Below, piece after piece: positions 28,117 through 37,721 of a DNA stretch of 64,000 nucleotides. The DNA is from an uncultured Clostridia bacterium (lineage in GTDB: Bacteria > Bacillota > Clostridia > Oscillospirales > Acutalibacteraceae). Location: the NCBI GenBank assembly GCA_947598155.1, contig CANQFC010000001.1:124001-188000 (forward strand), given 5' to 3'. The position numbers were made by a program, and so were the translations under genes. The notes beneath the pieces were generated by a model. That model made no database searches, was not told where the DNA came from, and saw only the letters and a program-made list of their open reading frames with translations. Numbering within the stretch: position 1 is the stretch's first letter; each line of letters starts with the position of its first letter.

Positions 28117-28163
28117 TTTATGCGACAACAAATTAAGAGAAGAAAACAGTGAGGAGAGTAAAA

Positions 28164-30530
28164 ATGTATACAGTTGTTAAACGTGACGGCAAGATTGTTG
28201 AATTTAACCTTGAAAAAATCAAGGACGCCATTGTTCTGGCGTTTGAGGCGTGCGAAACGCAGTACCACCCCGACACCATCGACTTTTTGGTGCTCAAGGT
28301 AACCGCCGATTTTGAGTCAAAAATCAAGGACGGAAGAATTACCGTAGAAAATATTCAGGACAGCGTTGAAACCGTGCTTATCAAAGCTGGGTATGACGAT
28401 GTTGCCAAGGCTTATATTCTTTACCGCAAGCAGAGAGAGAAACTGCGCAACATCAGCAAGACGACTCTTGACTATAAAACCATAGTGGACAATTACCTTA
28501 AAATAAACGACTGGCGTGTAAAGGAAAATTCAACCGTTACCTATTCCGTAGGCGGACTTATTCTCTCGAACTCGGGCGCGATTACGGCTAACTATTGGCT
28601 CTCCGAGGTCTATGATGAGGAGATAGGAAACGCCCACCGCAACGCGGACATTCACATTCACGACCTTTCAATGCTTACCGGGTACTGTGCCGGCTGGTCG
28701 CTCAAACAGCTGATTCAGGAGGGGCTCGGCGGCGTTCCGGGCAAAATCACGTCTTCGCCTGCGTCTCATCTTTCAACGCTGTGCAATCAAATGGTAAACT
28801 TCCTCGGCATTATGCAGAACGAATGGGCGGGCGCGCAGGCTTTCTCATCGTTTGACACGTATTTAGCTCCTTTCGTTAAAGTTGATAACCTTTCATATAA
28901 AGAGGTTAAGCAGTGCATACAGTCATTTATTTACGGCGTAAATACGCCCTCCCGCTGGGGTACGCAGTCGCCGTTTACAAACATTACCCTTGACTGGACG
29001 GTTCCGAACGACCTTGCGGAGCTCAACGCTATTGTCGGCGGCAAGGAATTGGATTTCAAATATAAAGACTGCAAAAAAGAAATGGATATGGTCAACAAGG
29101 CCTTTATTGAAATTATGATTGAGGGCGACGCCAACGGCAGAGGTTTCCAATATCCTATTCCCACATATTCAATCACGCGTGATTTTGACTGGTCTGAAAC
29201 CGAGAATAACAAGCTGCTTTTCGAGATGACGGCAAAATACGGCACACCGTATTTCTCAAACTACATCAATTCCGATATGGAGCCGTCGGACGTGCGTTCA
29301 ATGTGCTGCCGTCTGCGCCTTGATCTTCGTGAACTCCGTAAAAAATCGGGCGGTTTCTTCGGCTCGGGCGAGTCAACGGGTTCTGTCGGCGTTGTTACAA
29401 TAAATATGCCCAGAATCGCTTACCTTGCCGCCGATAAGGAGGACTTCTTTAAGAGGCTCGATAAGCTTATGGATATTTCTGCGCGTTCACTTAAAGTTAA
29501 GCGTACCGTAATAACAAAACTTCTTGAAAACGGACTTTACCCATACACAAAGCGTTATCTCGGAACATTCAATAACCATTTCTCAACAATAGGTCTTGTA
29601 GGTATGAATGAGGCTGGTCTTAACGCGAAATGGCTTAGGAAAGATATGACGCACAAGGAAACCCAAGACTTCACGGTTGAGGTGCTCAACCATATGCGCG
29701 AGCGTCTTTCGGACTATCAGGAAGAGTACGGCGACCTTTACAACCTTGAGGCGACGCCTGCGGAATCGACTTCATACCGTCTTGCTAAGCACGACAAGAA
29801 ATATTATCCCGATATTATTACCGCCAATGAGAACGGCACGCCTTACTATACAAACTCATCGCATCTTCCCGTCGGCTTTACCGAAGATATTTTCTCGGCT
29901 CTCGACATTCAGGACGAGCTTCAGACGCTTTATACGTCGGGCACTGTGTTCCACGCCTTCCTCGGTGAAAAGCTCCCCGACTGGCAGGCCGCGGCAAACC
30001 TTGTACGCAAGATAGCGGAGAATTACAGGCTCCCGTACTACACAATGTCGCCGACATATTCGGTATGTAAAAACCACGGTTACCTTGCGGGCGAGCAGTT
30101 TATATGCCCCGAATGCGGTGAAAAAACTGAGGTTTACAGCCGTATTACAGGCTATTACCGCCCCATTCAGAACTGGAACGACGGTAAAGCTCAGGAGTAT
30201 AAGGACCGTAAGGTTTACGACATTGCAAATTCGCATCTCTCGCACACGGGAGTTATTGAAAGAAACGATGAAAGCGCCGAATGTGTTTGCGAAACGCCGT
30301 CTCAGGACGCGACTTATATTTTCGCAACGACTACTTGCCCCAACTGCAAAATAGTTTGCTCAATTCTTGATAAAGCAAACATAGAGTACGACAAAATTTA
30401 TGCAGACGAACAGCCTGAGCTTGCCGCGGAGTTCGGCATAAAGAAAGCGCCGACTCTTGTCGTAGTTAAGAACGGCGAGGCAGAGAAAGTTTACGGCGTA
30501 TCCGATATAAAGAAATATTATAATATTTAA
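28164..30530 (+). CDS. nrdD: Anaerobic (class III) ribonucleoside-triphosphate reductase with C-terminal redoxin domain
   Basis: The 788-residue enzyme makes dNTPs from NTPs. It starts with an ATP-cone (about 1-90; VVKRDGKIVEFNLEKI), followed by the catalytic barrel. The glycyl radical site is at about Gly674 (NWNDGKAQEY), beside a zinc site including CPEC. Residues about 716-788 form a thioredoxin-fold extension with CPNC at 725-728 and a cis-proline-like KKAPTLVV. The ATG at 28164 follows GAGGAGA. A thioredoxin reductase gene begins 16 bp after the stop. The built-in redoxin and reductase partner indicate a disulfide-reduced (NrdD2-like) rather than formate-reduced enzyme; this part is inference. 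Confidence 0.93.
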   Translation: MYTVVKRDGKIVEFNLEKIKDAIVLAFEACETQYHPDTIDFLVLKVTADFESKIKDGRITVENIQDSVETVLIKAGYDDVAKAYILYRKQREKLRNISKTTLDYKTIVDNYLKINDWRVKENSTVTYSVGGLILSNSGAITANYWLSEVYDEEIGNAHRNADIHIHDLSMLTGYCAGWSLKQLIQEGLGGVPGKITSSPASHLSTLCNQMVNFLGIMQNEWAGAQAFSSFDTYLAPFVKVDNLSYKEVKQCIQSFIYGVNTPSRWGTQSPFTNITLDWTVPNDLAELNAIVGGKELDFKYKDCKKEMDMVNKAFIEIMIEGDANGRGFQYPIPTYSITRDFDWSETENNKLLFEMTAKYGTPYFSNYINSDMEPSDVRSMCCRLRLDLRELRKKSGGFFGSGESTGSVGVVTINMPRIAYLAADKEDFFKRLDKLMDISARSLKVKRTVITKLLENGLYPYTKRYLGTFNNHFSTIGLVGMNEAGLNAKWLRKDMTHKETQDFTVEVLNHMRERLSDYQEEYGDLYNLEATPAESTSYRLAKHDKKYYPDIITANENGTPYYTNSSHLPVGFTEDIFSALDIQDELQTLYTSGTVFHAFLGEKLPDWQAAANLVRKIAENYRLPYYTMSPTYSVCKNHGYLAGEQFICPECGEKTEVYSRITGYYRPIQNWNDGKAQEYKDRKVYDIANSHLSHTGVIERNDESAECVCETPSQDATYIFATTTCPNCKIVCSILDKANIEYDKIYADEQPELAAEFGIKKAPTLVVVKNGEAEKVYGVSDIKKYYNI

Positions 30531-30545
30531 AAGGCACAGCAATTT

Positions 30546-31454
30546 ATGTACGATATTATAATTGTCGGCGGTGGCCCCGCAGGGCTTACCGCCGCTCTGT
30601 ACGCACGCAGGGCAGACAAAAATGTGCTTATAATCGAAAAAGAAACCTTTGGCGGTCAGATAACATTTTCCCCGAAGGTTGAAAATATACCCGGATTTTC
30701 AAATATTTCGGGCAATGAGTTTGCCGAAAAGCTCGTTGAACAGGTGTTAAATCAGGGCGCGGATTTTGAATCCTGCGAAGTCCTGAAAATCATTGACGGA
30801 GATGTTAAAACCGTTGTCACCGATTCGGGCGATTTTCAGGGAAAATCCGTTATTATAGCAACGGGCGCCAAGCACAGAACATTGGGGCTTGACGGCGAAG
30901 AAGAGCTTATCGGCGGCGGGATTTCATTCTGTGCAGTTTGCGACGGCGCGTTTTACAGAAATAGGACGGTCGCGGTGGTAGGCGGCGGAAACTCCGCTTT
31001 GCAGGAGGCAATTTTGCTCTCGGAATTGGCAAAAAAAGTTTATGTTATTCAGAACCTTGATTTCCTTACGGGTGAAAAGAAACTTCAGGAACAACTCCGC
31101 TCTAAGGAAAATGTTGAGATAATATGCGGAACGGTACTTACAGCGTATAAATCAGACGGCGGAGATGTTGTCGGAATCGACGTTAAAAATCAAAACAGCG
31201 GCGAGGAGAGCGAAATTCCCGTTAACGGCGTCTTTCTTGCGGTCGGCCTTGTTCCGCAGAATGAGCGTTTTGCGGATGTTTTGGAGCTTGACGGGCGCGG
31301 ATATGCGTTGGCAGACGAAACCTGCGCTACAAAATCAAACGGCATTTTCACTGCCGGGGACTGCCGCGCAAAGCGTATCCGTCAGGTGACAACGGCGGCG
31401 GCGGACGGCGCAGTTGCGGCGCTCGCGGCTTGCGATTATATTGACGCCCTTTAA
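30546..31454 (+). CDS. trxB: Thioredoxin reductase
   Basis: The 302-residue FAD/NADPH enzyme has the dinucleotide motif GGGPAGLTAALYARR, the redox-active pair CAVC (about 131-134), the second nucleotide motif GGGNSALQEA, and the FAD-binding end TAGDCRAK. It lies 16 bp after nrdD, whose C-terminal redoxin domain is its likely substrate. A terminator follows. Confidence 0.92.
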   Translation: MYDIIIVGGGPAGLTAALYARRADKNVLIIEKETFGGQITFSPKVENIPGFSNISGNEFAEKLVEQVLNQGADFESCEVLKIIDGDVKTVVTDSGDFQGKSVIIATGAKHRTLGLDGEEELIGGGISFCAVCDGAFYRNRTVAVVGGGNSALQEAILLSELAKKVYVIQNLDFLTGEKKLQEQLRSKENVEIICGTVLTAYKSDGGDVVGIDVKNQNSGEESEIPVNGVFLAVGLVPQNERFADVLELDGRGYALADETCATKSNGIFTAGDCRAKRIRQVTTAAADGAVAALAACDYIDAL

Positions 31455-31470
31455 TATGGCAAAATGCAGT

Positions 31471-31504
31471 AAAATAACGGCAAATTATTGTCGTTATTTT
31501 TTTG
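31471..31504 (+). terminator. Terminator after trxB
   Basis: AAAATAACG (31471-31479) pairs with CGTTATTTT (31492-31500) and a T-run follows. Confidence 0.8.
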
Positions 31505-31523: not shown

Positions 31524-31552
31524 TTGAAAAAGAGGGCGCGGTTTGATATAAT
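31524..31552 (+). promoter_or_regulatory. Promoter of the CooC-like / dehydratase operon
   Basis: TTGAAA (31524-31529) and TATAAT (31547-31552) are exactly 17 bp apart, 33 bp before the first ATG. No NrdR, Rex or other familiar box is visible around it. Confidence 0.7.
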
Positions 31553-31585: not shown

Positions 31586-32368
31586 ATGGAGCGCAAAGCA
31601 AAAATAATAGCCGTTGCCGGCAAGGGCGGAGTCGGCAAAACCTCAATTTCCGGGGCTATTGTAAAGCTGTTGACCGAGGCTTATCCGGATAAGCGCATTT
31701 TAGCGATAGACGCGGACCCTGCCGTCGGGCTTTCAACCGCATTGGGAATTGAAGTTAATATGACTATTGACGACATTCGCAGGGAATTTGTAAACGAGGT
31801 TGAGAACGGCCAAGTGCGGGCCGCCATTGAAACGCTCGGCGACGCGCGCTATAAAATGTTTGACGCCCTCGTCGAAACAGACAAATTTGCGTTTATTGCC
31901 GTCGGCAGACCTGAAAGCGCGGGCTGTTACTGTAAAGTAAACGCTTATCTTAAAGAAGTAATTTCCGTTATGTCGTCTGATTTTGACTACGTTGTAATAG
32001 ACGGAGAGGCCGGAATTGAGCAGATAAACCGCAGGGTGATGGAAAAGGTAACGCATTTGATTTTGGTGACGGACGCGAGCAAAAAAGGCTGTGGAGTAAT
32101 AAAAACGGTTAAAGAGGTGGCGGATTCGCTTGTTATGTATGAGAAAACGGGCGCGATAGTCAACCGCATTCCCGATGAAAGCGTTATACCGCTTATAGAT
32201 ACAGGGGATATACCTGTTCTCTCATATATTATGTCTGATAAAAACTTAGCGTCCTTTGATATTGAGGGAAAGAATGTGTTGGAGATTCCGAGTTCTTCTC
32301 CCATTGTCACAGGGGTCAGAACGGCGCTCGAAAAATTAAGTATTTTAAATAAAGGCGGAAAGATATGA
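31586..32368 (+). CDS. CooC-like P-loop ATPase (metallocluster maturation type)
   Basis: The 260-residue protein is a SIMIBI-class ATPase: deviant Walker A GKGGVGKT (12-19), switch I region AIDADPAVGLSTALG, and Walker B-like VVIDGEAGIEQ. The GRPESAGCYC stretch carries the CxC pair (Cys114, Cys116) through which CooC proteins dimerise and bind Ni or Zn. CooC loads nickel into CO dehydrogenase. Here no CO dehydrogenase catalytic subunit is present. The gene is the first of an operon with dehydratase-type iron-sulfur proteins and overlaps the next gene by 4 bp. Maturation of, or electron gating for, those partners is the inferred role. Confidence 0.85.
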   Translation: MERKAKIIAVAGKGGVGKTSISGAIVKLLTEAYPDKRILAIDADPAVGLSTALGIEVNMTIDDIRREFVNEVENGQVRAAIETLGDARYKMFDALVETDKFAFIAVGRPESAGCYCKVNAYLKEVISVMSSDFDYVVIDGEAGIEQINRRVMEKVTHLILVTDASKKGCGVIKTVKEVADSLVMYEKTGAIVNRIPDESVIPLIDTGDIPVLSYIMSDKNLASFDIEGKNVLEIPSSSPIVTGVRTALEKLSILNKGGKI

Positions 32369-33561
32369 AGGATTTAAAGCATCTAATCTATTTTGAAAAA
32401 TTATTGCAGGAGGCTAAGAACGAGCTTGTAGACAAGGCGATAAGCGACGGTAAATTAGCCGTTGCGTACACCTGCTATCACATTCCCGAGGTTCTTCTGA
32501 ATGTAGGAAACTGCTTTTCCGTGCGACTGCGCGCGCCCAGAACCGGCTCAATGGATATTGCCACTTACTATATGAGCTCGTATCTGTGCGGTTATTCCAA
32601 GGCTTTGCTTGAGAGGGGAATAGAGGGCGGATACAATTTCCTTTCGGCGTTTATCGGCTCCGAATCCTGCTCCGAAATGAACAGAACATATGAGCATTTT
32701 GAGGTGTTAAATCTCGTCGCAAACGACAAATTTTTTGTTTCGATTGCCGATATTCCGTTTAAAATAGAGCCGCACACGATAAAGCACTATGCAAATCAGA
32801 TGCAGACAAAGGTGCTTGACAGGCTAAATGAGGTCTACGGCGTGGATATAAGCGAGCAGTCATTGAGGAAGGCCGTTGAGGAGCATAACGAGGTTTGCAG
32901 GCTTATTACCGAAATCGGGGAGTACAGAAAAGAGGAAAATCCGAGAATAACGGGCTATGAATTTCACGTTTTAAACCTCGTTACATATTGCTGTCCTAAA
33001 TATTTGATTATCGACAAGCTCCGCGAAACGGCCGAGGAACTTAAAACAAGAGTCCCCGATGAAAAGAAAAATTACAGAGCTAAAGTCGTTGTTGTAGGCT
33101 CTGAAATGGATGACCCCGACTTTACAAAGCTCATTGAGGAGTCAGGCGCGTTGGTTGTCGCCGACCGCTACTGTTTCGGCTCTCTGCCGGGGCGTGAGGA
33201 GATTGAGCTTACCGATGACCGCAACGTGCTTGAGCAGATAATTCTTCATTATATGAAGACATGCCAATGCCCAAGGTATATGGCGCAGGATAAGGTACGT
33301 GGCAGAAAAGAGTATGTAAGACAGCTTGTAAACGATTACCATGCCGACGGCGTAATTTATGAGCAGATAAAATTCTGCGAATATTGGGGCTATGAAAGGG
33401 CGCTTGCCTCTCACATTATGACAAACGAGTATGGAATCCCGTCCGTTACGGTTGACAGGCAGTACACCGCCAGCGCGTCGGGTCAGCTCCGAACACGGGT
33501 TCAGGCATTTGTAGAAAGCCTTGAAATTAAAAAAATTCAGAAAGAGAAGGGGGCTATATAA
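32365..33561 (+). CDS. 2-Hydroxyacyl-CoA dehydratase / double-cubane family protein, subunit A
   Basis: The 398-residue protein belongs to the HgdB/BcrC/FldBC family. Cysteines expected to hold an iron-sulfur cluster lie at the family positions: Cys37 (TCYHIPE), Cys75 (YLCGYSKALLE) and Cys102, with further conserved ones at Cys270 (ADRYCFG), Cys300/302 (TCQC) and Cys338 (KFCEYWGYE). It could be a radical dehydratase subunit or a double-cubane-cluster reductase; the sequence cannot tell. It overlaps the genes on both sides by 4 bp and 1 bp, which suggests a fixed ratio with its partner. Confidence 0.85.
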   Translation: MKDLKHLIYFEKLLQEAKNELVDKAISDGKLAVAYTCYHIPEVLLNVGNCFSVRLRAPRTGSMDIATYYMSSYLCGYSKALLERGIEGGYNFLSAFIGSESCSEMNRTYEHFEVLNLVANDKFFVSIADIPFKIEPHTIKHYANQMQTKVLDRLNEVYGVDISEQSLRKAVEEHNEVCRLITEIGEYRKEENPRITGYEFHVLNLVTYCCPKYLIIDKLRETAEELKTRVPDEKKNYRAKVVVVGSEMDDPDFTKLIEESGALVVADRYCFGSLPGREEIELTDDRNVLEQIILHYMKTCQCPRYMAQDKVRGRKEYVRQLVNDYHADGVIYEQIKFCEYWGYERALASHIMTNEYGIPSVTVDRQYTASASGQLRTRVQAFVESLEIKKIQKEKGAI

Positions 33562-35111
33562 TGGGATTTTGGGTTAATCAGCCGAAAAATCTCGGCAATC
33601 TTCACAAGGATAAAACGTGGATACTAAAGCACCGTGAATGGCGCGGGCTCCGCGACACGATGTACGATTATTATCGTTGGCTTATAACTTGGAAAAATAT
33701 TATCGTAATGGCGCTCAAAGCGCCCGTTTCAACGGTAAAGGGCATCTGGAACTACCGCTGGATGGCGTCTTATCTTTCTGCTCCCGCTTGGGTAGACAGG
33801 CACACTGAGGGCCTGCGGGGAACGCATCTGCGCATAGCTCACCTGCATTTTAACGGCCTTGTAAAGCCGACTACGGATATTATCCGTTTTCTGCTTACAA
33901 ACGACAAGCATTTTCACAAAAAATCAAAGATGGACGACAAGACCGTTCTTGTTGACGAGATTTTTTCTTCTGAGTTGACCGCCGGGTTCCCGGGACTTCG
34001 TGACGTTCACGTTTCGACTATCCCGATTTTCCTCACCTCAATGGTTGACCAGCAGATAACGCCGCATTACCTTGATATTACCGAAAGCTACGGAGTTCCC
34101 GCCGATGTTTGCCCTCTTCCGTCTGCGGAGGCGGGCGTTGCAATAAACGACGATTATCCTATTTTCGGAAAATGCGCGCTTACCTGCAATATGCCGTGTG
34201 ACGGCTCGGTTATAAATTCAAGCTTTATTGACAGAAGATTTAATATTCCGACCCACCCTATAAACGTTCCCCTCCGCTACAACGGCGAGGACGTTCAGGA
34301 ATATGCTGTTGACGAGGTTAAATCCGCGATTAAATTTATTGAGGAGCAGACCGGAGTTAAATTTAATTGGGACGCCTTTTCAAGCGCTATGGAAAGGTAC
34401 AACTTACAGCTTGATTATGAAATGCAGAAGTGGGATATAAATAAAACCGATTATCCGCAAATGACGGGCGCGACGTTTTGGCTTTACAGACTTTTCTATT
34501 TCCATATTTCGGGCGGTATGAACAAGCTTTACCCCAAGACAGACAAAAAGGTTAATAAGCTGATGATGAAGGGCTTTGAAAGAAAGGAGCCCGTTTCAAA
34601 AGAAATGCGTCACAGAGCCATAGTTTGGTCCTGCCCCGCAAACTATTACACAAGCCTTGCGAATTGGCTTGAAAATTGCTGGGGTATAAACGTGGTTATG
34701 GATATGGAAACTATGATTTCCTACATAAAATACGACACGACCGATGAAGAAAAAGCGCTTGCTACATACGCGAAAACGCTTCAGAGAACTACAATGAGAA
34801 AGCATACAAAGGGCGGCTATCAAAACGTTGTAGACGAGCTTTGGAGAATAGTCGATGAGTTTAACGCCGATATGGTTATTATGTACGACCAGATTTCCTG
34901 CAAGGGTATGGACGGACTTGTCGGCATATTCGACGACCAGGCGAGGGAAAGAGACATAAGTTTCATTTGGATTCCGCAGGACCTTATGGACCCGAGAACG
35001 ATTTCGCGGAGAGATATGCGTGAAAACGTTAACAAATATATGACAACGGTTCTCGGTGAAAAGCCCGTTGACCCGACGCTCGTAGATTTTGACGATACAA
35101 TGGCTTGGTAA
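33561..35111 (+). CDS. 2-Hydroxyacyl-CoA dehydratase / double-cubane family protein, subunit B
   Basis: The 516-residue protein is a diverged, longer relative of subunit A. It has about 120 extra N-terminal residues rich in aromatic and basic positions before the family core. Cluster-type cysteines are seen at Cys184 (ADVCPLPSAEAG), Cys205, Cys209 and Cys213 (GKCALTCNMPC), with later ones in VWSCPANYY and DQISCKGMDG. Its ATG overlaps the stop of subunit A (TAATG). It should pair with subunit A as a heterodimer served by the activase downstream. No acyl-CoA ligase, CoA-transferase or enoyl reductase is nearby, so a CoA-ester substrate is doubtful. Confidence 0.8.
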   Translation: MGFWVNQPKNLGNLHKDKTWILKHREWRGLRDTMYDYYRWLITWKNIIVMALKAPVSTVKGIWNYRWMASYLSAPAWVDRHTEGLRGTHLRIAHLHFNGLVKPTTDIIRFLLTNDKHFHKKSKMDDKTVLVDEIFSSELTAGFPGLRDVHVSTIPIFLTSMVDQQITPHYLDITESYGVPADVCPLPSAEAGVAINDDYPIFGKCALTCNMPCDGSVINSSFIDRRFNIPTHPINVPLRYNGEDVQEYAVDEVKSAIKFIEEQTGVKFNWDAFSSAMERYNLQLDYEMQKWDINKTDYPQMTGATFWLYRLFYFHISGGMNKLYPKTDKKVNKLMMKGFERKEPVSKEMRHRAIVWSCPANYYTSLANWLENCWGINVVMDMETMISYIKYDTTDEEKALATYAKTLQRTTMRKHTKGGYQNVVDELWRIVDEFNADMVIMYDQISCKGMDGLVGIFDDQARERDISFIWIPQDLMDPRTISRRDMRENVNKYMTTVLGEKPVDPTLVDFDDTMAW

Positions 35112-35131
35112 AGTGAAAAGGAGATTTTGAT

Positions 35132-35926
35132 ATGAAATATTTTGGCGGATGCGACGTAGGTTCAACCTACGCGAAATGTGTAATTCTCGATGAAAACGGC
35201 AAAATGGTCGCCGATGCCACGGTAAGGAGCAAAATAAACCCTGTTCAAAGCGCCGAATTGGCGCTCGGCGAGGCGATAGACAAAGTCGCTGACATTAACT
35301 CCGCTCAGGAGCTTACCTATCTCATAGGCACTGGGTACGGCAGAAACAAAGTCCCGTTTGCCGATGAAAACATTTCGGAAATAAGCTGTCACGCAATGGG
35401 CGTACATGTTACAAATCCGGAGGTTAAGGCGATTATAGATATAGGCGGTCAGGACGTTAAGGGCATTGCCATTGACAAAGACGGCACAGTTAAAAACTTC
35501 GCTATGAACGACAAGTGCGCGGCAGGTACGGGCAGATTTTTTGAGGCTATGGCAAACGCTTTTGAAATGAGCCTTCCCGAGTTTTGCAAGCTTTCGCTCA
35601 GCGCTAAAAACACTATACCCATTACCGCCCAGTGTACGGTTTTTGCGGAATCCGAGGTTATCTCTCTTGTGGGCGAGGGCAAGCCGATGGATGAAATAGC
35701 GGCGGGAATACAGCTTGCCGTTGCGAAAAGATGTTTTGTAATGGCTAAAAAAGCGGGCGCCACAGACAGCATTACGCTTACGGGGGGCTGCGCAAAGAAC
35801 GAGGGCCTTAAAAGAGCTATCGAAAAGGTGCTGAAAATAAATGTCGTTGATTTAAGCATCGACCCACAGCTTATGGGCGCGCTCGGCGCTGCCGAATATG
35901 CAAGGCAGAAAGGACTTTCAAAATGA
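35132..35926 (+). CDS. ATP-dependent activase (HgdC/BadF/BcrA type)
   Basis: This 264-residue ASKHA-fold ATPase has the phosphate motifs GGCDVGSTYAK and IDIGGQDVKGI and the adenosine motif LTGGCAKNEGL. Cys129 (NDKCAAGTGRF) and Cys168 (TAQCTVFAESEV) are the two residues that bridge a [4Fe-4S] cluster between subunits of the homodimer. Such activases use ATP to lower the potential of one electron and pass it to the dehydratase or double-cubane partner. AAAAGGAGA precedes the start. The stop overlaps the next small gene as ATGA. Confidence 0.93.
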   Translation: MKYFGGCDVGSTYAKCVILDENGKMVADATVRSKINPVQSAELALGEAIDKVADINSAQELTYLIGTGYGRNKVPFADENISEISCHAMGVHVTNPEVKAIIDIGGQDVKGIAIDKDGTVKNFAMNDKCAAGTGRFFEAMANAFEMSLPEFCKLSLSAKNTIPITAQCTVFAESEVISLVGEGKPMDEIAAGIQLAVAKRCFVMAKKAGATDSITLTGGCAKNEGLKRAIEKVLKINVVDLSIDPQLMGALGAAEYARQKGLSK

Positions 35927-36081
35927 TTAAAGCGTTGATTATAATCGGCATAGTGCTTTTGTGCCTTTTTGTGATTACATTTATTATTTATTTCTTTAAT
36001 CTTGATATGAAGCTTGTCCGCAAAATTTATGACGCGCTCGGAAAGCATTATGACAAGCTTGAAAAGGACAGAAAGCTTTAA
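35923..36081 (+). CDS. Small single-span membrane protein of the dehydratase operon
   Basis: The 52-residue product is one hydrophobic helix (about 4-26, including IIIGIVLLCLFVIT) and a charged tail (LDMKLVRKIYDALGKHYDK). Its start overlaps the activase stop (ATGA) and its stop shares a base with the next ATG (TAATG). That two-sided coupling is strong evidence it is translated. I recognise no family. It may hold the complex at the membrane or carry a partner; this is inference. Confidence 0.75.
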   Translation: MIKALIIIGIVLLCLFVITFIIYFFNLDMKLVRKIYDALGKHYDKLEKDRKL

Positions 36082-36770
36082 TGAAGTTTTTTGATAAGCA
36101 AATAAGAGAATTTAAGGACGAAATTGAAGAAAAAGAAAAATCCTTTTATCCTTTTTCGGGGAATGCTTGGGAAGACGCCGGCAGAAATGAAATTGTTATG
36201 CAAAAAGAAACGGCGTTTGAGCTTAAAGGCACCGGATTTGAGCTTTTTACATCTGAAAATATCGGCGGCGACGGTGTAATCGTTGTCGGCGGGGAGCTTG
36301 ATACATTCAAAGAAAATACGCCGTTTGCACGCGTAAGTCTTATTGAGATTGACGGAATTGAGGATGAACAGACGGCGCACGACGCGGTCAGAAAAATCGA
36401 GCGCGTAAAATACCGATATTTTCCCAAAGGATATATGATTCGCACAAATTCGATGAGCAACGCGGAAAATGTACGCGTTTCAAAACAAGCTGTAAAAGAT
36501 GGGATTTCATTTGAAAAAGTCGGCAGTCTGCTTATTTCAAAATATAAAGAAAACCCATCGGTAAAGGCGGCCAAGGTGTTCTTTATTACCGATAAAACGG
36601 TTAATTTTTCCGCTCTTGATTCTTTGTCGGAAAAATGCAGAGATGTAGCGGCGGCGCTTGACCATATAATAAGGGATTTGAATTTGGACTGCAATACCTG
36701 CAAGCTTAAAGCGATATGCGATGAGGTTGAGGGTATGAAAGAGCTGCATTTTAAAAATGCAAAAAAATAA
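36081..36770 (+). CDS. Acetyl-CoA synthase beta (CdhC/AcsB)-like protein lacking a full A-cluster
   Basis: The 229-residue protein appears to match the central part of acetyl-CoA synthase beta: a FELxxx-then-VIVVGGELDTF strand pair, and NVRVSKQAVKDG followed by FEKVGSLLISKY and KVFFITD, which parallels the WIRISKxxxxKGFRLKHIGxxLHAKF region of AcsB. The C-terminus has CNTCKLKAIC (about 206-215), three cysteines in a tighter spacing than the A-cluster set, and the later LCGAYNWLDC part is absent. It should not form a normal Ni-Ni-[4Fe-4S] site. Its place beside a CooC-like ATPase makes the likeness more believable. The assignment is by eye and needs a profile search. Confidence 0.55.
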   Translation: MKFFDKQIREFKDEIEEKEKSFYPFSGNAWEDAGRNEIVMQKETAFELKGTGFELFTSENIGGDGVIVVGGELDTFKENTPFARVSLIEIDGIEDEQTAHDAVRKIERVKYRYFPKGYMIRTNSMSNAENVRVSKQAVKDGISFEKVGSLLISKYKENPSVKAAKVFFITDKTVNFSALDSLSEKCRDVAAALDHIIRDLNLDCNTCKLKAICDEVEGMKELHFKNAKK

Positions 36771-36791
36771 GCTCGTTTCAGGAGTGGTTTT

Positions 36792-37721
36792 TTGGAATTT
36801 TTAACTAAGGAATACTCGTTTCCGTCTGCGTCGGGGCTTTGCGATATTTACGCTCAGAGCGCCGCTCCGATGGATTACGGCAGCATTCGGGGCGTCGTTC
36901 AGATTTCTCACGGAATGGCTGAGTATTCAAACCGATATGCGCAGTTTGCTTTGGAGCTTTGCAAAAACGGTTACGCTGTTTTTGTAAGCGACCATATAGG
37001 GCACGGCTCGTCGGCGGCAAATAAAGAAATGCTCGGATATTTCGGCGACAGCGGCGAAGAAACGTTTGTTGAGGATTTAAAGTCGCTTTCGGATATTATT
37101 AAAAGCGAATATAATGATTTACCGCTGTATTTGCTCGGCCACGGAATGGGCTCTCTTATTGCCCGTAAATATACGGCTAAATACGGCTATTTGCTTGACG
37201 GCGTAATTTATACCGGTACAAGCGGCGAAAATCCTGCTCTCGGGGTCGGAATCCAGCTTGCAAATACGCTTATTAAGCAAAACGGTCCCTATTACCGTTC
37301 CGAACTTCTTGACACGATAGCTTTCGGAGCTTATAACCGAAAAACAGAGAAAAGAACTGAGTTTGACTGGGTCTCAAGAGATGCAAAAGAGGTAGACAAA
37401 TTTATTGCCGACGATCTTTGCGGATTTAAGTACACCGTCAGCGGAATGAAGGCGCTTTTTCTGACTCTAAAGTCTGTTTCAACAAGACGCTGGTATAATT
37501 CCGTGCCGTTAAGTATGCCTATTTTACTGATGTCAGGTTCAATGGATCCGATAGGCGATTATACAAAAGGCGTTAACGAGGTCTGCAAAACGCTTAAAAA
37601 AACGGGGCATAAGTATGTAACACTTAAGTTTTATGAGGGCGCCCGCCATGAAATTTTAAACGAGATAAACCGTAAAGAGGTTTATGACGACATAATTTCG
37701 TGGCTTAACGCTTTAAAATAA
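36792..37721 (+). CDS. Alpha/beta hydrolase, PldB/monoacylglycerol-lipase type, with altered nucleophile
   Basis: The 309-residue protein has the alpha/beta hydrolase order: oxyanion motif ISHGMAEYSNRY (39-49), VSDHIGHGSS, nucleophile elbow LLGHGMGS (114-121), acid SGSMDPIG and base GARHEILNE. The elbow should read GHSMG, but position 118 is glycine (codon GGA), so the serine is missing while Asp and His remain. It may be inactive or non-hydrolytic. Start is TTG at 36792 with CAGGAGTGG upstream. It lies 21 bp after the ACS-like gene and is probably in the same operon. Confidence 0.8.
   Translation: MEFLTKEYSFPSASGLCDIYAQSAAPMDYGSIRGVVQISHGMAEYSNRYAQFALELCKNGYAVFVSDHIGHGSSAANKEMLGYFGDSGEETFVEDLKSLSDIIKSEYNDLPLYLLGHGMGSLIARKYTAKYGYLLDGVIYTGTSGENPALGVGIQLANTLIKQNGPYYRSELLDTIAFGAYNRKTEKRTEFDWVSRDAKEVDKFIADDLCGFKYTVSGMKALFLTLKSVSTRRWYNSVPLSMPILLMSGSMDPIGDYTKGVNEVCKTLKKTGHKYVTLKFYEGARHEILNEINRKEVYDDIISWLNALK

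What the first reader, a model, noticed from the sequence alone, without database searches (positions are those of the whole stretch)
31586..37721. Operon joining a CooC-like ATPase, a dehydratase/double-cubane pair with activase, a small membrane protein and an ACS-beta-like protein
Six genes overlap or nearly touch (overlaps at 32365, 33561, 35923 and 36081), so they are co-produced. CooC-type ATPases normally serve nickel CO dehydrogenase; HgdC-type activases normally serve 2-hydroxyacyl-CoA dehydratases, benzoyl-CoA reductase or double-cubane proteins. Here both ATPases serve one locus, with an ACS-like third partner but no CO dehydrogenase catalytic subunit, methyltransferase or CoA-ester enzymes. 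This could be a new ATP-driven low-potential reductase or a metallocluster assembly line.
Basis: partly seen in the sequence, partly recalled or inferred. Interest (0 to 1): 0.85.

Follow-up and report, generated by a model that had tools for sequence, protein, structure and literature searches.

The report
ATP-driven reductase with nickel-type helper genes
A conserved set of six neighbouring genes in gut and rumen bacteria seems to build an ATP-powered iron-sulfur enzyme for very difficult reductions, together with a helper pair that resembles the machinery that loads nickel into acetyl-CoA synthase; what it reduces is not known.

Summary
Six overlapping or closely spaced genes (31586-36770) encode CooC, two HGD-D proteins (HadB, HadA), an activase, a 52-aa membrane protein and an ACS-like protein (AcsL); the hydrolase at 36792-37721 is a local neighbour. 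They form one system: 51 complete copies in this order were found (48 dereplicated), with HadA down to 38% identical to the window's and with varying flanks. Among 390 other class genomes, HadA and AcsL occur in the same six. HadB keeps the six cysteines that hold BzdN's [8Fe-9S] cluster; HadA keeps three, as in BzdO. AcsL is only the ACS middle domain plus three cysteines that align with the start of the A-cluster motif. CooC keeps its CxC metal site. Of 69 genomes with HadA, 67 have one AcsL, while HadA copies number one to nine. Within the genus CooC and AcsL co-diverge apart from the other genes. Best reading: an ATP-driven, membrane-tethered BzdNO/DCCP-like reductase with its own metal-maturation pair related to AcsF-ACS. 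Nickel is inferred; the substrate is unknown. The window's genome shows no CO dehydrogenase, urease or HypA above cut-off. New variant of a known kind.

The parts
31471..31500 (+). terminator-like stem and T run between trxB and the operon
   Evidence: 13-pair stem (3 G-C) then T run; such sites are not above the shuffled expectation in this region (9 found, mean 7.7)
31524..31552 (+). sigma-70-like promoter, TTGAAA-17-TATAAT with TG before the second hexamer
   Evidence: 11 of 12 consensus bases, 33 bases before the CooC start; consensus match only (19 sites found, mean 10.3 in shuffles)
31586..32368 (+). CooC/AcsF-type P-loop ATPase
   Evidence: best PDB match CooC1 3kje, E 3.7e-15; Walker A GKGGVGKT and C114-x-C116, the two Cys in 62 of 62 aligned members
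32365..33561 (+). HadB: BzdN/DCCP-like subunit, predicted [8Fe-9S] double-cubane carrier
   Evidence: PF06050 319.9 bits; BzdN 8s02_B E 2.5e-26; C37/C75/C102/C270/C302/C338 in 102 of 102 rows align with BzdN C36/73/100/263/293/327
33561..35111 (+). HadA: BzdO/HAD-alpha-like subunit with an N-terminal extension, predicted [4Fe-4S] active site
35132..35926 (+). activase (ASKHA ATPase, HgdC/MbdQ type)
   Evidence: TIGR00241 211.5 bits, over its cut-off; MbdQ E 1.4e-61; C129 and C168 in 74 of 74 rows and aligned with Cys of MbdQ and the HAD activator
35923..36081 (+). 52-aa protein with one N-terminal membrane helix
   Evidence: no Pfam match; 106 of 107 homologues have a 19-aa stretch with hydropathy of at least 1.6; travels with HadB-HadA also in mini-operons
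36081..36770 (+). AcsL: ACS middle-domain protein with C-terminal Cx2Cx5C

Best explanation
The operon makes one ATP-driven, low-potential reductase and its own cofactor-maturation pair. HadB and HadA form a BzdNO-like heterodimer: HadB carries an [8Fe-9S] double cubane as electron store, HadA a [4Fe-4S] active site, and the 52-aa helix tethers the pair to the membrane. The activase hydrolyses ATP to push electrons, presumably from ferredoxin, into HadB. CooC and AcsL act before catalysis, in the manner of AcsF and ACS: CooC binds a metal at its CxC site, with nickel the likeliest, and uses ATP to load it on AcsL or through AcsL onto the reductase, whose cluster it completes. One CooC-activase-AcsL set serves all HadBA pairs of a cell. 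Shown by sequence: gene content, conserved order, co-occurrence, cysteine sets, folds, copy-number asymmetry, CooC-AcsL co-divergence in the genus. Inferred: cluster types, electron flow, membrane tether, maturation role. Not known: substrate, identity of the metal.
For: Cysteine sets: HadB six of six double-cubane ligands (ligand numbers from passages of PMC11971306); HadA three, which align with DCCP C114/C144/C374, positions that correspond to three of HadB's six. HadA model closest to catalytic subunits of HAD, BzdNO and MbdON. Activase over its cut-off. AcsL in 68 of 69 genomes with HadA, one copy in 67, against 1-9 HadA copies and two or more in 30 of 69. CooC-AcsL distances r 0.88 (Mantel p 0.0001, 12 operons) while CooC-HadA is 0.15 (p 0.12) and CooC-HadB 0.08 (p 0.21). 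CooC and AcsL are neighbours in a rearranged operon (L039: B-A-R-t-C-S) and stand as a two-gene pair in L133. AcsL's three cysteines align with the first three of the ACS A-cluster [4Fe-4S] motif. CooC's nearer relatives sit beside full-length ACS in 3 of 7 fetched loci. A sister CooC lies in a BzdQ-containing HGD-D locus, L177.
Against: No biochemistry. Nickel is not shown: the window's genome has no HypA, CO dehydrogenase or urease match over cut-off, so there is no independent sign that it uses nickel; [NiFe] hydrogenase and nickel uptake were not searched. Over all 48 operons the CooC-AcsL correlation (0.75) is no higher than AcsL with activase (0.81), HadA (0.78) or HadB (0.78); CooC is AcsL's strongest partner only as a partial correlation (0.46). 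The last 30 residues of the AcsL model, with the three cysteines, have low confidence (block means 55-71). The L177 locus has CooC but no AcsL match, so AcsL is not needed by every CooC-HGD-D system. AcsL evolves fast (40% mean identity against 83% for the activase).
Confidence: 0.6

Rival explanations
1. CooC and AcsL help to build or insert the [8Fe-9S] double cubane itself (an iron-sulfur chaperone role), and no nickel is involved. CooC would act like other MinD/MRP-type cluster carriers.
For: L177 pairs a CooC relative (CxC kept) with a HadB-like protein that keeps all six cysteines and with a BzdQ over its cut-off, but shows no AcsL match. The window's genome lacks other nickel markers that were searched.
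Against: All of CooC's relatives seen beside full-length ACS belong to a nickel pathway, and the CxC is the Zn/Ni site of CooC1 (PMC6006190, passages). In 5 DCCP loci named by NCBIfam no CooC was looked for, so a general need is untested.
Confidence: 0.2
2. The HadBA-activase unit is an ATP-driven reductive activator of another metalloenzyme, such as the IsrA family (putative nickel-dependent isoprene-reductase type), much as ATP drives activation of methyl-coenzyme M reductase; CooC, AcsL and HypA load nickel on that client.
For: IsrA homologues lie within two genes on the same strand in 29 of 80 genome-contig loci, HypA within three in 27 of 80, in both gene orders. IsrA is proposed to be nickel-dependent with HypA/HypB (PMC10134865, abstract, passages and section 9). 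The MCR activation complex precedent: PMC12176620, passages.
Against: Full-length IsrA is absent from the window's genome and 11 of its 16 tested genus mates that hold the operon; there only an unrelated GltD-type region matches. Many of the 29 loci are close relatives (Pseudobutyrivibrio). HypA in the genus tracks IsrA, not the operon (full-length matches only in the five IsrA genomes, plus two weak ones).
Confidence: 0.12
3. An ordinary 2-hydroxyacyl-CoA dehydratase or aryl-CoA reductase whose CoA-ester genes lie elsewhere, with CooC and AcsL as incidental companions.
For: Fold and activase are of that family; L177 shows a CooC relative with CoA ligase, thiolase and CoA-transferase-like genes.
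Against: NCBIfam equivalog cut-offs for HAD and BCR subunits are missed by a wide margin. HadA and HadB form their own clades apart from HAD and DCCP (BCR sequences were not in that tree). Companions are not incidental: AcsL is in 68 of 69 genomes. The position of BzdO His131 (Cys128+3) is Ser216 in HadA.
Confidence: 0.08

Closest known systems
Class I benzoyl-CoA reductase BzdNOPQ (8s02; PMC11971306)
   Same: Two HGD-D subunits, one with six double-cubane cysteines and one with three; ASKHA activase
   Different: One activase gene instead of two; NCBIfam cut-offs not met; Ser at the position of BzdO His131 (no-gap count); N-terminal extension on HadA; CooC, AcsL and membrane helix added
Double-cubane cluster protein DCCP and DCCP-R (6eno, 7yyl; NF040772)
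   Same: Six-cysteine double-cubane site in HadB; ATP-dependent reductase partner
   Different: DCCP is described as a homodimer with a double cubane per monomer (PMC11971306, passage); here a heterodimer in which HadA has lost three of the six; 145.9 and 46.1 bits against a cut-off of 350
CooC and AcsF nickel-insertion ATPases
   Same: Walker A GKGGVGKT and CxC; closest relatives in ACS-type operons
   Different: No CO dehydrogenase in the window's genome; partner is a truncated ACS
Acetyl-CoA synthase (AcsB/CdhC)
   Different: No N-terminal domain; lacks the fourth cluster cysteine and the CGC motif seen in the full-length ACS of L176
Putative isoprene reductase IsrA with HypA (PMC10134865)
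   Same: Frequent neighbour in Lachnospiraceae and other loci
   Different: Not part of the core: missing from the window's genome

Membership tests
HAD/BCR/DCCP superfamily (HGD-D plus activase) | PF06050 domain over cut-off in both subunits | tested here: met
   319.9 and 153.8 bits against 28.4
HAD/BCR/DCCP superfamily (HGD-D plus activase) | CoA-dehydratase-type activase with its two cluster cysteines | tested here: met
   TIGR00241 211.5 against 125.4; C129 and C168 align with MbdQ and 4eht
Double-cubane proteins | six cysteine ligands of an [8Fe-9S] cluster | tested here: met
   HadB, 102 of 102 rows, aligned with BzdN ligands; cluster itself not testable here
DCCP | NF040772 equivalog score | tested here: not met
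   145.9 (HadB) and 46.1 (HadA) against 350; five DCCP controls from other genomes scored 510-529
2-hydroxyacyl-CoA dehydratase | NF052455/NF052456 equivalog score | tested here: not met
   23.5 and 89.8 against 750 and 700
Class I benzoyl-CoA reductase | equivalog scores of Bcr/Bzd subunits | tested here: not met
   HadB 102.3 against 453.8 (bzdN); activase 166.3 against 380.2 (bzdQ)
Class I benzoyl-CoA reductase | two different activase subunits | tested here: not met
   one activase gene in the operon; the rest of the genome was not searched for a second one
Class I benzoyl-CoA reductase | reduction of an aryl-CoA ester | not testable with these tools
   needs enzyme assay
CooC/AcsF | deviant Walker A and CxC metal site | tested here: met
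   aligned with 3kje; CxC in 62 of 62; site described in PMC6006190 (passages)
CooC/AcsF | nickel binding and insertion | not testable with these tools
   needs metal binding assay
CooC of CO dehydrogenase | client CO dehydrogenase in the genome | tested here: not met
   no TIGR01702 match in G000; 7 of 69 operon genomes have one over cut-off
Acetyl-CoA synthase | middle domain fold | tested here: met
Acetyl-CoA synthase | complete A-cluster (four iron-sulfur cysteines and CGC) in a C-terminal domain | tested here: not met
   AcsL ends after three aligned cysteines
IsrA system | full-length IsrA in the genome | tested here: not met
   G000 matches only residues 398-876 of the 936-aa query, 35% identity

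The most novel reading that the evidence does not exclude
A first nickel-dependent (or other heterometal) member of the ATP-driven HAD/BCR/DCCP family: a Ni-Fe-S reductase that works without CO dehydrogenase, matured by a CooC-AcsL pair descended from AcsF-ACS, in which a half-size ACS has been turned from catalyst into metal carrier. It has expanded in gut and rumen Clostridia into families of up to nine paralogous reductases per genome, and may hydrogenate or dearomatise substrates in partnership with IsrA-type enzymes.
Probability: 0.3. Interest if true: 0.92.

Novelty: new variant of a known kind. Interest (0 to 1): 0.75.

Why it matters
ATP-driven double-cubane enzymes reach the lowest potentials known in biology, and the only substrates noted for DCCP in the passages read are small test molecules of unclear physiological relevance (PMC11971306). 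This system joins such an enzyme to a nickel-type maturation pair, occurs in hundreds of relatives (at least 574 in one capped scan), many named as rumen or gut bacteria, and has cultured hosts (Pseudobutyrivibrio, Butyrivibrio). It makes two questions testable: whether double-cubane enzymes can carry nickel, and how a truncated acetyl-CoA synthase module was reused as a maturation factor. A role in disposal of electrons in the rumen would bear on hydrogen and methane budgets (inference).

Tried and rejected
Rejected: AcsL as an acetyl-CoA synthase (no complete A-cluster). Rejected: a Wood-Ljungdahl context in the window's genome (no CO dehydrogenase). Considered and left: C373 of HadA as a cluster ligand; it is invariant (124 of 124), but it stands before strand 376-381 and its DCCP counterpart is Ala299, so no claim is made; coordinates of the model could not be measured. 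Considered: HypA as a core part; rejected because in the genus it follows IsrA. Considered: the acetogen 'Ca. Galacturonibacter' that lacks canonical CODH/ACS (PMC7000372, passages); no link to this operon found there.

Limits: the class sample (391 genomes) is an even draw, not the whole class. Of the 69 genomes used for copy numbers, 46 were reached through loci found by HadA, so HadA-rich genomes are over-represented. Cysteine counts used rows within set length ranges and without duplicates or unknown residues. The operon comparison used only complete operons. In the HGD-D tree the first 130 residues of HadA were cut off, no BCR sequences were present, the HAD references score below their equivalog cut-offs, and 5 of the 16 reference rows in the DCCP and HAD groups (L152, L169 twice, L159 beta, L170 beta) were assigned by pairing or length, not by a scan; long branches make the deeper joins unsure. 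Names of some neighbours (OYE-like, GntR, HydE, CysK, corrinoid protein and methyltransferase genes in L179, L181, L184) were read by eye from recall, not scanned.

Papers: ten searches showed no paper that joins CooC, an ACS-like protein and HGD-D reductases; only listings, abstracts and passages were seen, apart from section 9 of PMC10134865. Only openly licensed papers are held.
Full report
What is there. The window holds CooC (31586-32368), HadB (32365-33561), HadA (33561-35111), activase (35132-35926), a 52-aa membrane protein (35923-36081) and AcsL (36081-36770), in overlapping or nearly touching frames. A sigma-70-like promoter (31524-31552, 11 of 12 bases) and a terminator-like stem (31471-31500) precede CooC, but such patterns are not strong evidence here. 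The names HadB and HadA are mine and do not follow those of the dehydratase literature. The hydrolase at 36792-37721, inside the stated range, follows the operon only in close relatives.

One system. In the genus AcsL was found in 18 of 36 members, own genome included, one of them (G033) a fragment at a contig end; none of the 23 genomes of other genera in that call had it. In 390 other genomes of the class HadA was found in six and AcsL in the same six, plus one weak hit inside a real 709-aa ACS in G210. The CooC subfamily at over 50% identity was found in five of those six; in the sixth, G065, the contig ends inside HadA. A scan of genome contigs gave at least 574 relatives of HadA, of which the best 80 were kept. 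Among all loci fetched, 51 complete operons have the order CooC-HadB-HadA-activase-TM-AcsL, the window's included, 48 after dereplication. Compared with the window, HadA identity over the other 50 runs from 38 to 95% and AcsL from 25 to 76%. In 11 genus loci the upstream neighbour belongs to six different families, so the six genes keep together while the surroundings change.

Division of labour. In 38 of the 80 scanned loci no CooC, activase or AcsL was recognised beside HadA, and many of these are small HadB-HadA-TM operons, although some loci are cut by contig ends. Yet 68 of 69 tested genomes hold AcsL: one copy in 67, two in G460. The one miss, G483, has a HadA so close to a contig end that AcsL could have run off it (inference). 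HadA is present once to nine times, twice or more in 30 of 69. So one CooC-activase-AcsL set seems to serve several HadBA pairs. Rearranged loci show CooC next to AcsL (L039), CooC-activase-TM-AcsL without HadBA (L137) and CooC-AcsL alone (L133). Within the genus (12 operons) CooC and AcsL distances correlate at r 0.88 (Mantel p 0.0001), CooC with HadA only at 0.15 and with HadB at 0.08, although CooC and AcsL are the two ends of the operon; AcsL with HadA gives 0.36 (p 0.02). Over all 48 operons this contrast fades: CooC-AcsL 0.75, AcsL-activase 0.81, with CooC-AcsL the strongest partial correlation of AcsL at 0.46.

A second CooC-HGD-D locus. L177 (genome G239, which also has the six-gene operon) holds a HadB-like protein with all six cysteines, a HadA-like protein with the three, a CooC with CxC, a BzdQ over its cut-off (420.7 against 380.2), a second activase, and CoA-ligase, thiolase and CoA-transferase-like genes, but no AcsL match. 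It suggests that CooC joined HGD-D reductases before AcsL, and leaves a CoA-ester ancestry open.

Neighbours. IsrA homologues (putative isoprene reductase family, proposed nickel-dependent, PMC10134865) lie within two genes on the same strand in 29 of 80 loci and HypA within three in 27 of 80, some of them near copies of each other. Full-length IsrA is missing from the window's genome and from 11 of 16 tested genus mates. HypA over cut-off is seen in 55 of 69 genomes; in the 17 genus genomes in the five with IsrA, plus two weak cases. So this is a frequent partner, not a core part. An old-yellow-enzyme-like gene (read by eye) adjoins the operon in eight loci.

CO and nickel context. CO dehydrogenase over cut-off: 7 of 69 genomes, not the window's nor its 16 tested genus mates. 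Urease over cut-off: 0 of 23. HypA in the window's genome: below cut-off. [NiFe] hydrogenase was not searched.

Verdict. A real, conserved and apparently undescribed (ten paper searches, listed under Tried and rejected) six-gene system: a new variant of the ATP-driven HAD/BCR/DCCP family with an AcsF-ACS-related helper pair.

Noticed in passing
window 28149-30530: Anaerobic ribonucleotide reductase NrdD (793 aa) carries a C-terminal glutaredoxin/thioredoxin-like stretch (residues 724-782), next to a thioredoxin reductase gene at 30546-31454: perhaps a self-contained reductant supply.
   Followed up: no
L177:7838-18775: A CooC-family ATPase inside a BzdQ-type, CoA-ester-like HGD-D locus of genome G239, without AcsL.
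   Followed up: partly
L107, L104, L111, L115, L120 and others (Mogibacterium MAGs), right after the small membrane gene: A HydE-like radical-SAM gene and a cysteine-synthase-like gene follow HadB-HadA-TM (names by eye); some of these loci are near relatives.
   Followed up: no
L063-L067, L069, L101: A GntR-like regulator gene (read by eye) lies close to the operon, mostly on the opposite strand just upstream, in seven loci.
   Followed up: no
window 36081-36770 and genus loci L029-L044: AcsL diverges far faster than its operon mates: mean identity in the genus 51% against 81% for HadA and 92% for the activase.
   Followed up: partly
genome G487 (Firmicutes bacterium CAG:103): Nine HadA and eight IsrA matches, some of them pieces of genes, with one AcsL: the largest expansion seen.
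   Followed up: no
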